Assembly (NCBI GenBank): GCA_025453435.1
Contig: JALOQI010000022.1
Coordinates: 1-7,437, forward strand
Origin: Candidatus Omnitrophota bacterium
GTDB taxonomy: Bacteria; Omnitrophota; Koll11; Gygaellales; Profunditerraquicolaceae
Length of the DNA: 7,437 nucleotides
Direction of reading: 5' to 3'
The notes beneath the pieces were generated by a model that worked only from the letters and a program-made list of their open reading frames with translations, was not told the DNA's origin and did not search any database. Numbering within the stretch: position 1 is the stretch's first letter; each line of letters begins with the position of its first letter. The position numbers and the translations under genes were made by a program. Positions 4,391 to 5,520 of this stretch are shown here, piece after piece.

Positions 4391-4405
4391 TATCTTTTTT
4401 ATTTA

Positions 4406-4487
4406 TGGGCGGAAGAGGATTTGAACCTCCAAGGGTTTCCCCAATAGCTCCTAAGGCTATCGTGTCTGCCAATTCCACCATCCGCCC
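4406..4487 (-). tRNA. tRNA-Leu (anticodon UAG)
   Basis: The 82-nt gene has acceptor strands GGGCGGA and TCCGCCC with discriminator A. The D arm is GTG...CAC, and the anticodon stem ATAGC/GCTAT encloses loop CTTAGGA with anticodon TAG, read as UAG. A long variable arm (TGGGGAAACCC region) marks a type II tRNA, as expected for leucine. The T arm is GGAGG TTCAAAT CCTCT, with four clear pairs. CCA is not encoded. It lies between the tandem repeat array and the small membrane-protein ORF, all on one strand. Confidence 0.96.
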
Positions 4488-4518
4488 GGATTAACAATGT
4501 GGTATGGCAATGTAACGA

Positions 4519-4831
4519 CCGCGAAGCGGTTGCGATATACGTGAGCTGAGCCCCAAGCTATTACTTCATGGGGCGAAATCCCGCATGCACGTATGATAAT
4601 TTATGCGGGACTCCCGCGAAGCGGCAGCGAGTTAAATGAGCTGAGTCCCCATCTATTACTTCCAGGGACGAAATCCCACATGCGCGTCAGATTACTTAGT
4701 GGGACTCCCGCGAAGCGGTTGCGATATACGTGAGCTGAGCCCCCAATCTATTACTTAAGGGGGCGAAATCCCGCATGCACGTATGATTATTTATGCGGGA
4801 CTCCCGCGAAGCGGTTGCGATATACGTGAGC
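4519..4831. repeat. Tandem array of ~95-bp structured repeats (three full units and one partial)
   Basis: This array fills most of the 339-bp gene-free gap between tRNA-Leu and tRNA-Lys. Units start at 4519, 4614, 4708 and 4804 (lengths 95, 94, 96 and a 28-bp partial). Each full unit has three inverted repeats on the plus strand. The first is CCGC-GAA-GCGG at the unit start. The second is a G(C/T)CCC / GGG(A/G)C stem with a 14-15 nt loop containing CTATTACTT: 4550-4554 with 4570-4574, 4645-4649 with 4665-4669, and 4739-4744 with 4759-4764. The third is TCCC(G/A)C / G(C/T)GGGA: 4579-4586 with 4603-4610, 4674-4679 with 4699-4704, and 4769-4776 with 4793-4800. Units 1 and 3 differ at only about six positions; unit 2 is much more diverged but keeps every stem. 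There is no ORF, T-tract terminator or CRISPR layout. Function unknown; a structured RNA, a small mobile palindromic element, or a recombinogenic repeat are all possible. Confidence 0.93.
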
Positions 4832-4899
4832 CTCCCGCGACTCGAACGCGGCACACCTACCTTAAAAGGGTAGTGCTCTACCAGATGAGCTAGAGGCCC
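4827..4899 (-). tRNA. tRNA-Lys (anticodon UUU)
   Basis: The 73-nt cloverleaf has acceptor GGGCCTC paired with GAGGCTC (one G-U pair) and discriminator A. The D arm is GCTC ATCTGGTA GAGC, the anticodon stem CTACC/GGTAG encloses loop CTTTTAA with anticodon TTT, and the T arm is CCGCG TTCGAGT CGCGG. CCA is not encoded. Its last five bases (4827-4831) coincide with the end of the partial fourth repeat of the adjacent array. Its first eleven bases recur as a direct repeat 55 bp upstream. The gene itself appears intact. Confidence 0.97.
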
Positions 4900-4906
4900 T
4901 ATTTAC

Positions 4907-4954
4907 GAAGCCTCCTTAGTCCCTGGGAGCGAAGCGACCAGGGGCTAGAGGCCC
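4907..4954 (-). repeat. tRNA-Lys-like remnant: duplicated tRNA 5' end plus acceptor-like 3' strand
   Basis: On the minus strand, GGGCCTCTAGC (4954-4944) is an exact copy of the first 11 nt of tRNA-Lys (4899-4889). Downstream, GAGGCTT (4914-4908) resembles the tRNA 3' acceptor strand GAGGCTC and can pair with GGGCCTC using two G-U pairs. Between them, where the D, anticodon and T arms should be, lies only a hairpin. This may be a collapsed tRNA-Lys duplicate or a hairpin inserted beside a short duplication. The 11-bp match is seen directly; the remnant reading is inference. Confidence 0.5.
4921..4943. repeat. GCGAAGC-centred hairpin between frr and tRNA-Lys
   Basis: CCCTGG (4921-4926) and CCAGGG (4938-4943) form a 6-bp stem. 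Inside it lies GA-GCGAAGC-GA, so on the plus strand the stem would continue through two stackable G-A mismatches into the GCGAAGC mini-hairpin (4929-4935). Neither strand has a following T-run, so it is not a standard intrinsic terminator for frr. The same GCGAAGC core occurs in every unit of the nearby array. Confidence 0.75.
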
Positions 4955-4959
4955 ATAGC

Positions 4960-5520
4960 TTAAAATTCCAGGACTTCTTTTTCTTTTAATTTCAGAGATT
5001 CTTCTATCTTCGCCGCGAATTTATCCACCATTTTCTGGACTTCATCCAATCCGCGGAATTTTTCGTCTTCGGATATATGCTTGTCTTTTTCAAGCTTCTC
5101 AAGAAGCGCTTTTGATTCATGCCGCACTGTGCGCAAAGATACGCGGCCTTCTTCAGCCATTTTATGGACTACCTTTGCCAACTCCTGGCGCCTCTCTTTC
5201 GAAAGCTGAGGGACGCTGAGCCTGACGACCTTGCCGTCGTTCGAAGGGGTGATGCCCAGATTAGACTTCATTATCGCCTTTTCGATCTCAACGATAGCGG
5301 TCGGGTCCCACGGCTGGATCAAAAGCATATGAGCGTCGGGAACGGATATCTGCGCCATCTGTTTGAGCATCGTAGGGGTGCCGTAATAATCGATGTGCAG
5401 GCCTTCGACCAGCGCCGGGTTGGCGCGGCCTGTCCTGACTTCGGCGAAGTTGCGCGCCACGAAATCCACGCTTTTTTTCAGCTTATCCTCGGTAGAATGC
5501 AATACTTCCTTTACTGTCAT
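4960..5520 (-). CDS. frr: Ribosome recycling factor
   Basis: The 186-residue product has the length of RRF (about 185). RRF works with EF-G to split post-termination ribosomes in the cytoplasm. Family signatures are visible: FAEVRTGRANPALVEG at about 26-41, DYYGTPTMLKQMAQISVPD, then IQPWDPTAIVEIEKAI, SNLGITPSNDGKVVRLSVP, and the basic helix LSKERRQELAKVVHKMAEEG. The C-terminal region is charged and helical, forming the long three-helix bundle with the N-terminus. I start it at ATG 5520 because AGGAGG lies 5 bp upstream; an in-frame GTG at 5524-5526 overlaps that site and is not a credible start. It begins 19 bp after the pyrH stop, in the common rpsB-tsf-pyrH-frr order. It is the last protein gene of that cluster before the tRNA and repeat district. 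Confidence 0.97.
   Translation of the reverse strand: MTVKEVLHSTEDKLKKSVDFVARNFAEVRTGRANPALVEGLHIDYYGTPTMLKQMAQISVPDAHMLLIQPWDPTAIVEIEKAIMKSNLGITPSNDGKVVRLSVPQLSKERRQELAKVVHKMAEEGRVSLRTVRHESKALLEKLEKDKHISEDEKFRGLDEVQKMVDKFAAKIEESLKLKEKEVLEF

What the first reader, a model, noticed from the sequence alone, without database searches (positions are those of the whole stretch)
4519..4831. Tandem ~95-bp repeat with covarying stems between two tRNA genes
Three full units share three hairpins. In the divergent middle unit, changes come in pairs that keep the helix: stem 2 pair C-G becomes T-A (4646 with 4668), and stem 3 pair G-C (4583 with 4606) becomes A-T (4678 with 4700). Two independent compensatory changes among only three copies suggest that the fold, not just the sequence, is maintained. 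I recognise no known RNA or element family here.
Basis: partly seen in the sequence, partly recalled or inferred. Interest (0 to 1): 0.75.

Follow-up and report, generated by a model that had tools for sequence, protein, structure and literature searches.

The report
Hairpin mobile element inside tRNA copies
The repeat is three tandem copies of a roughly 65-base double-hairpin DNA element lodged in extra copies of a tRNA gene's end; relatives of it are scattered through uncultured Omnitrophota bacteria, about a third of those examined sit inside partial tRNA copies, mostly in their loops, and I found no description of such a habit.

Summary
The 95-bp x 3.3 array (4519-4831) and both compensatory changes are real. 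It is not one 95-nt RNA. On the tRNA strand each unit is a 31-bp copy of the tRNA-Lys 3' end and trailer plus a 63-65-bp element, TCCCGC..GCGGGA-TTTC-GCCCC..GGGGC-TCA; without the element the tRNA-Lys end and trailer are continuous again. A covariance model from 11 elements finds relatives in Omnitrophota: 49 of 117 genomes of one order at E<=1e-5 against none of 30 outside genomes below 0.0018. Of 140 examined places, 47 interrupt tRNA-like sequence precisely, without target duplication, against 8 of 420 swapped-flank controls. Of 45 mapped junctions 42 lie inside a T-, D- or anticodon loop (sequence-only expectation about 0.58). An intact tRNA of the same isotype lies beside 42 of 45. Best reading: a non-autonomous double-hairpin mobile element that favours tRNA loops, amplified here into an array; covariation keeps the hairpins. 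Not shown: movement, its enzyme, transcription. The window's own site, in the acceptor 3' strand, is an exception to the loop rule. No Rfam match; no description in eight literature searches; no link to Y1 (RAYT-like) transposases.

The parts
4826..4899 (-). intact tRNA-Lys(UUU) next to the array
   Evidence: ARAGORN, Rfam RF00005 57.4 bits
4801..4831 (-). first 31-bp segment: tRNA-Lys 3' end plus trailer (GCTCACGTATATCGCAACCGCTTC) followed by GCGGGAG; its first bases are the end of the intact gene
4736..4800 (-). element copy 3 (65 bp, two hairpins)
   Evidence: R1 65.9 bits at 4735-4800 (an R1 training member); boundaries from the rejoined site
4705..4735 (-). 31-bp tRNA-Lys-end/trailer segment, identical to 4801-4831
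   Evidence: 31/31 identity
4642..4704 (-). element copy 2 (63 bp, divergent, carries the two compensatory pairs)
   Evidence: R1 57.0 bits at 4641-4704 (training member); 52 of 65 aligned columns identical to copy 3
4611..4641 (-). 31-bp segment, 25/31 identical to the other two
4547..4610 (-). element copy 1 (64 bp)
   Evidence: R1 60.6 bits at 4546-4610 (training member); 60 of 65 aligned columns identical to copy 3
4519..4546 (-). last copy of the tRNA-Lys 3' end and trailer with the trailer hairpin (GCTCACGTATATCGCAACCGCTTCGCGG); array end
   Evidence: 26-nt exact copy; sequence
4406..4487 (-). tRNA-Leu(UAG), next gene of the cluster
4921..4954 (-). probable second scar on the 5' side of tRNA-Lys: 11-nt copy of the tRNA 5' end (GGGCCTCTAGC) followed by a GC-rich hairpin
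   Evidence: read; not an R1 match; a similar arrangement in L014; inference

Best explanation
The array consists of three copies of a small non-autonomous mobile DNA element (63-65 bp here; 45-79 bp for the middle 80% of 140 places) made of two consecutive hairpins joined by a conserved linker (TCCCGC-loop-GCGGGA-TTTCGC-...-GGCTCAA or GGTGCTCAA). Shown from sequence: about a third of the examined relatives lie within tRNA-like sequence that is continuous again when the element is taken out, with no target duplication, mostly in the T-, D- or anticodon loop, in both orientations; the interrupted tRNA is a partial direct repeat next to an intact tRNA. In the window the insertion point is GCGGGAG^GCTCACG in a copy of the tRNA-Lys 3' end; a unit of (31-bp tRNA end/trailer + element) is tandemly repeated three times. 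Inferred: the element moves as hairpin-forming DNA (probably single-stranded, acted on in trans by an unidentified enzyme); only insertions accompanied by a duplication that keeps one working tRNA survive; units then multiply by unequal recombination; paired changes are kept because the hairpins are needed for movement, or by conversion between arms.
For: Unit anatomy and boundaries. Covariance model R1 from 11 elements (3 of the window, 8 from five genomes) finds the family in one order: best E<=1e-5 in 49 of 117 genomes (my count of the table; 5 of the 49 supplied training elements) against a best E of 0.0018, 21.5 bits, in 30 non-Omnitrophota genomes; phylum-wide 27 of 141 at E<=5e-4. Empty-site test on 140 non-overlapping places: joining flanks raises the tRNA alignment score by >=6 in 47 of 140 against 8 of 420 swapped-flank joins, by >=8 in 32 of 140 against 2 of 420; without the 11 training elements 42 of 129 and 28 of 129. 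Junctions mapped for 45: T-loop 22, D-loop 13 plus 2 at its edge, anticodon loop 7, other 1; strictly inside loops 42 of 45, against 0.30 for uniform positions or 0.58 with a site preference learned from 78 non-tRNA matches. Intact same-isotype tRNA in the fetched stretch for 42 of 45, all 42 in direct orientation, 36 within 60 bp; D-loop insertions on its 5' side 15 of 15, T-loop on its 3' side 17 of 19. Arrays of the same design: L123 (109 bp, tRNA-Pro), L208 (94 bp, tRNA-Gln), L101 (122 bp, tRNA-Glu). Family covariation. In the syntenic spacer, 9 of 28 relatives with tRNA-Lys carry a second copy of their own tRNA-Lys 3' end, starting at the T-loop in 7 of 9.
Against: 93 of 140 places are not in sequence that my test recognises as tRNA, although the tRNA library (159 distinct, more than half of them Lys, Leu and Gly) is small, so some are missed. 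The window's three copies score a gain of 5, below my cut of 6, and their site is in the acceptor 3' strand, not a loop. Flanks of non-tRNA copies are only slightly more complementary than controls (mean 4.16 against 3.84), so aiming at hairpin loops in general is not shown. No autonomous copy and no linked enzyme was found: 0 of 50 examined Y1 loci (of 101 matches) carry an element; reverse transcriptase is in 3 of 11 element-rich genomes. The closest relative, G001, has no good R1 hit (best E 0.049). The 45 junctions reduce to 24 tRNA-type/orientation/loop classes, 21 of them strictly in loops, and insertions inherited by related species may be counted more than once. The examined places are the better-scoring R1 matches, not all. 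Movement was never observed; I have no within-species presence/absence data; the genomes are largely draft metagenome bins.
Confidence: 0.74

Rival explanations
1. A structured non-coding RNA or processing signal of the tRNA-Lys/Leu/Gly transcript; the array is kept for RNA function.
For: Array sits inside a same-strand tRNA cluster; minus strand folds better than shuffles; covariation across the family; several related copies end in an SD-like GGTGCTCAA just before start codons.
Against: Both orientations relative to the tRNA occur (33 to 12); the spacer is not conserved in the closest relative; copies occur at unrelated sites; no Rfam match.
Confidence: 0.1
2. A REP/REPIN-type element moved by a RAYT (Y1 HUH transposase), i.e. 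a member of a known bacterial system with an unusual target.
For: Short hairpin pairs with one conserved tag-like end; Y1_Tnp domain in 34 of 40 genomes of the order; TCAA at the 3' end recalls the right cleavage site of IS608 (recalled, not from a call).
Against: 0 of 50 examined Y1 loci carry an element within the fetched stretch (51 further matches not examined); all 11 genomes without an element match at E<=0.05 have Y1, while two element-rich bins (G011, G012) show none (bins may be incomplete); no GTAG or CGTC tag and no fixed tetranucleotide 5' of the insertion.
Confidence: 0.12
3. No mobile element: hairpins and partial tRNA repeats arise by replication slippage and template switching at tRNA palindromes.
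For: Tandem tRNA fragments and a shared GCGG between tRNA and trailer at the window duplication; inverted repeats are typical products of template switching (recalled).
Against: A conserved sequence (GCGGGATTTCGC in many copies; CTCAA end at 77 of 140 places) recurs in many species and contexts, which local slippage does not give; junctions are precise and loop-centred.
Confidence: 0.07
4. RNA-level origin: element RNA joined into cut tRNA loops, copied to DNA and recombined beside the tRNA gene.
For: No target duplication; an RNA intermediate was suggested for Allomyces hairpin elements (PMC2800124, passage read); tRNA loops are common RNA cleavage sites (recalled).
Against: Both orientations; many copies outside recognised tRNAs; reverse transcriptase found in only 3 of 11 element-rich genomes.
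Confidence: 0.05

Closest known systems
Double-hairpin / repetitive hairpin-forming elements of fungal and sponge mitochondria (Allomyces DHE; sponge RHE, PMC2800124)
   Same: Short, hairpin or double-hairpin, scattered copies, no flanking duplication reported for Allomyces, mechanism unknown (passages read).
   Different: Mitochondrial; the passages read name no preference for tRNA loops. Here bacterial, with a conserved linker and a tRNA-loop preference.
REP/BIME/REPIN with RAYT transposases
   Same: Bacterial, short, palindromic, often paired or tandem, non-autonomous.
   Different: REPs are tagged GTAG or CGTC at one end (PMC3733652, passages read); no such tag here, and no element at 50 examined Y1 loci.
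Yeast mitochondrial GC clusters (GC42, PMC4478555)
   Same: Short mobile palindromes that can merge (passages read).
   Different: GC clusters carry AG/ACT target duplications; none here.
Rickettsia palindromic elements
   Same: Short palindromes inside genes of bacteria.
   Different: Mentioned in PMC3733652 (passages) as inserted in protein genes; here partial tRNA copies are the favoured recognised site.
tRNA-targeting integrative elements (tyrosine recombinase att sites)
   Same: Use the tRNA anticodon loop, T-loop and 3' end and leave an intact tRNA plus a displaced fragment (recalled).
   Different: Insert here is about 95-120 bp without any gene, D-loop sites occur, and the extra tRNA fragment matches the host's own tRNA.
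Group I introns in bacterial tRNAs
   Same: Interrupt tRNAs without target duplication (recalled; interrupted tRNAs with putative group I introns are named in PMC4853749, passages).
   Different: Far longer and catalytic; here only 9 of 151 empty sites give an ARAGORN tRNA (shifted-removal control 12 of 1399), six of the nine in a tRNA-Pro class where the tRNA is intact anyway.

Membership tests
REP/REPIN (RAYT-mobilised) | GTAG or CGTC tetranucleotide at one end of the hairpin | tested here: not met
   Copies begin TCCC in most cases; 3' ends are CTCAA at 77 of 140 places, then CTCAG, GACAA, TTCAA, CTTGA, CGGGA
REP/REPIN (RAYT-mobilised) | copies flank RAYT genes | tested here: not met
   50 of 101 Y1_Tnp matches examined; no R1 match above 12 bits
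IS200/IS605-type element (PATE) | insertion 3' of one fixed tetra/pentanucleotide, no target duplication | tested here: not met
   No duplication, but the left flank is only pyrimidine-rich: position -2 T or C in 43 of 45, -1 T or C in 35 of 45
Integron attC | RYYYAAC/GTTRRRY core sites at the ends and an adjoining cassette ORF | tested here: inconclusive
   Junctions looked at by eye only, motif recalled; nothing fitting seen
Double-hairpin elements (DHE/RHE kind) | two hairpins, dispersed copies, no flanking duplication | tested here: met
Double-hairpin elements (DHE/RHE kind) | homology in sequence with the mitochondrial elements | not tested
   No mitochondrial sequence compared
Any Rfam 15 family | score above gathering threshold | tested here: not met
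   Only tRNA in the window and in 16 element loci; at E<=5 in 4400-5000 also mir-299, 17.8 bits against a gathering score of 67
MITE of a DDE transposon | target-site duplication | tested here: not met
   Flanks of the tRNA-embedded copies rejoin to tRNA without duplicated bases

The most novel reading that the evidence does not exclude
A family of gene-less double-hairpin mobile elements in bacteria that recognises stem-loops as targets and enters the D-, anticodon and T-loops of tRNA genes without target duplication, with insertion coupled to a partial tRNA duplication that spares the host tRNA, and that multiplies as tandem arrays. My eight literature searches showed no such bacterial element; integrase-borne elements are known to use anticodon and T-loop sites (recalled), but they carry genes.
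Probability: 0.45. Interest if true: 0.75.

Novelty: new variant of a known kind. Interest (0 to 1): 0.62.

Why it matters
It would explain a recurrent clutter of partial tRNAs and hairpins around Omnitrophota tRNA genes, give a bacterial counterpart to the poorly understood double-hairpin elements of mitochondria, and offer a testable case of insertion guided by hairpin loops. It also warns that covarying stems in a repeat can mark mobile DNA and not a regulatory RNA.

Tried and rejected
Tried and rejected or inconclusive: (a) The 95-mer as one family: BLAST over 15 relatives gave weak partial hits in 9, which led to the element. (b) A strict pattern CCCGC-n-GCGGGATTTCGCC over 145 phylum genomes matched in 4, one of them a family member already known (G002); the other three were not pursued. 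(c) Bacterial tRNA introns: interrupted copies are partial or have broken acceptor ends, with an intact tRNA nearby. (d) RAYT partner: no element at 50 of 101 Y1 matches. (e) RVT_1, Y1_Tnp and Phage_integrase over 22 genomes (11 element-rich, 11 without a match): none separates the two groups. (f) Complementary flanks at non-tRNA sites: no clear excess. (h) Plasmids and phages: no match to the array. (i) E<=0.05 with R1 does not separate: 89 of 117 in the order but also 16 of 30 outside, so I used E<=1e-5. (j) My first counts (151 matches, 47 junctions) held the same palindromic element on both strands in 11 cases; one search merges overlaps to 140 places and 45 junctions, dropping two junctions (L198, L121).

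Papers: passages read of PMC2800124, PMC4478555, PMC10066038, PMC3733652, PMC4853749; PMC3116915 and PMC12306157 only as search listings with abstract starts. Paquin 2000 on Allomyces is recalled and seen only as cited. 'Not described' rests on searches in open-access full texts.

Full report
What is there. The window is chromosomal DNA of an Omnitrophota-like bacterium: its RRF protein is 85% identical to that of a Candidatus Omnitrophota MAG, and 4.2 kb and 2.6 kb around the array align at about 78% and 76% DNA identity to that locus, L001. On the minus strand run rpsB, tsf, pyrH, frr, tRNA-Lys, the array, tRNA-Leu, tRNA-Gly and PTS-type genes (protein gene names by my reading of the translations). 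The array is 95 bp x 3.3 at 4519-4831.

Anatomy. Read on the tRNA strand, the repeat splits into a 31-bp segment (GCTCACGTATATCGCAACCGCTTCGCGGGAG) and a 63-65-bp element that starts TCCCGC or TCCCAC and ends CTCA. The first 24 bases of the segment are the tRNA-Lys 3' end and trailer, and its last seven repeat the GCGGGAG just before the insertion point. A 26-nt exact copy of the tRNA-Lys end and trailer was found at two further places. Taking the element out gives GCGGGAG+GCTCACGTATATCGC, the sequence at the intact gene. Segments 3 and 2 are identical (31/31), segment 1 differs at 6; elements 3 and 1 agree at 60 of 65 columns, 3 and 2 at 52 of 65. A shared GCGG in tRNA and trailer could have seeded the duplication (inference).

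A family. The 95-mer itself gave weak partial hits in 9 of 15 related genomes; several shared the element half and lay next to tRNAs. From 11 elements (3 of the window, 8 from five genomes) I built covariance model R1. No tRNA criterion was applied, but I had seen the contexts, and five of the eight outside elements proved to be in tRNA copies. In the order of G009, 49 of 117 genomes have a best E<=1e-5 (counted by hand; five of them supplied training elements). Outside Omnitrophota, 30 genomes gave nothing below E 0.0018 or above 21.5 bits. At E<=0.05 the two sets do not separate (89 of 117; 16 of 30). A phylum-wide draw gave 27 of 141 at E<=5e-4. The closest relative G001 has no good hit (best E 0.049), though its tRNA-Lys spacer holds a different two-hairpin insert followed by a 24-nt exact copy of its own tRNA-Lys end.

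Insertion into tRNA copies. R1 gave 163 matches in the loci I fetched, which are the better-scoring part of the listed hits; 151 were distinct with at least 30 nt on both sides, and merging overlapping matches on the two strands leaves 140 places. For each I joined the flanks, allowed small boundary shifts, and aligned to 159 distinct Omnitrophota tRNAs on both strands. The gain over the better single flank was >=6 in 47 of 140 against 8 of 420 joins with swapped flanks, and >=8 in 32 of 140 against 2 of 420; without the training elements 42 and 28 of 129. Two of the 47 lacked 6 aligned nt on both sides. The other 45 map to the T-loop 22, D-loop 13 (2 more at its edge), anticodon loop 7, other 1. 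Strictly inside loops: 42 of 45, against 0.30 for uniform positions and 0.58 if positions are weighted by the site preference of 78 non-tRNA matches. The 45 fall into 24 tRNA-type/orientation/loop classes, so they are not all independent. The window's own copies (gain 5, acceptor 3' strand) fall outside this count and outside the loop rule.

A regular layout. For 42 of 45 an intact tRNA of the same isotype lies in the fetched stretch, always in direct orientation, 36 times within 60 bp. D-loop insertions lie on its 5' side (15 of 15), T-loop insertions mostly on its 3' side (17 of 19), anticodon-loop insertions 5 of 7 on its 5' side. In many cases the flank alignment shows an exact copy from the nearer tRNA end to the insertion point. 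So such an event leaves one working tRNA. In the syntenic tRNA-Lys spacer, 9 of 28 relatives carry a second 3' end, copied from their own tRNA, which starts at position 57-59 (0-based, T-loop) in 7 of 9; in a few of the other 19 the contig ends too soon to tell. Arrays of the same design occur elsewhere: L123 with 109-bp units in a tRNA-Pro T-loop copy, L208 with 94 bp in tRNA-Gln, L101 with 122 bp in tRNA-Glu.

Fold. In alignment A3 (99 distinct rows) 97.6% of cells pair; 26 cells are changed on both sides against 2.4 in shuffles, and sliding the partners destroys the pairing. The alignment was fitted to the model, which favours this. A check on pairs outside the model shows one further pair in each hairpin above shuffles (0.74 against 0.57; 0.60 against 0.44), and none clearly beyond.

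How it works. I think this is hairpin DNA moved in trans. Both orientations (33 and 12 of 45), no target duplication and a loose pyrimidine^A-rich site speak against a fixed-target Y1 element and against an RNA inserted in one sense. I found no enzyme: 0 of 50 examined Y1 loci, of 101 matches, have the element, and RVT_1, Y1_Tnp and Phage_integrase do not separate 11 element-rich genomes from 11 without a match. The mobile step, the cause of the tRNA duplication and the growth of arrays are inferences.

Other copies. 93 of 140 places are not in sequence that my test recognises as tRNA; the small tRNA library makes this an overestimate of non-tRNA sites (by eye, L133, L138, L139 and L145 also sit in tRNA copies). 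Several copies end in GGTGCTCAA or GGAGCTCAA at or just before a start codon; three precede an ORF that reads MCGIVGY (L110, L251) or MCGIFGI (L257), glmS by my reading. These may have been put to use as ribosome-binding sites, which leaves room for RNA roles at some sites.

Novelty. No Rfam family matches, and eight literature searches showed no such element in Omnitrophota or in bacterial tRNA loops. The kind, short double-hairpin mobile repeats, is known from mitochondria (PMC2800124, PMC4478555; passages read) and in another form from REP/REPIN; the tRNA-loop habit is the new part.

Noticed in passing
L110 1501-1586, L251 84-169, L257 556-644: 86-89-nt element variants end in GGTGCTCAATG, overlapping the start codon of an ORF beginning MCGIVGY (L110, L251) or MCGIFGI (L257), glmS by my reading; in L110 and L251 a tRNA lies just upstream.
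   Followed up: partly
L024 5644-5731, L206 618-703, L234 546-634, L240 617-704, L224 599-645, L248 572-618: Copies placed immediately before a start codon or a GGAGG motif, so that the element end could serve as ribosome-binding site.
   Followed up: no
window 4921-4954: Copy of the first 11 nt of tRNA-Lys plus a hairpin upstream of the gene, a probable second insertion scar; L014 10568-10633 looks alike.
   Followed up: partly
L104, L111, L134, L218, L255, L264: Copies in front of tRNA-Pro in which the right arm of hairpin 2 is the tRNA-Pro 5' end itself, so the tRNA stays intact.
   Followed up: partly
L152, L216, L226, L235, L245, L247, L253, L263 (G103): A high-copy subfamily with a conserved right flank TAATTC(G/A)C.., suggesting a longer element in that genome.
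   Followed up: no
L364 1-310 (viral contig): Tandem CGGGATTTCGCCCGCATTAG-type repeats in a viral contig, probably unrelated to the element.
   Followed up: no
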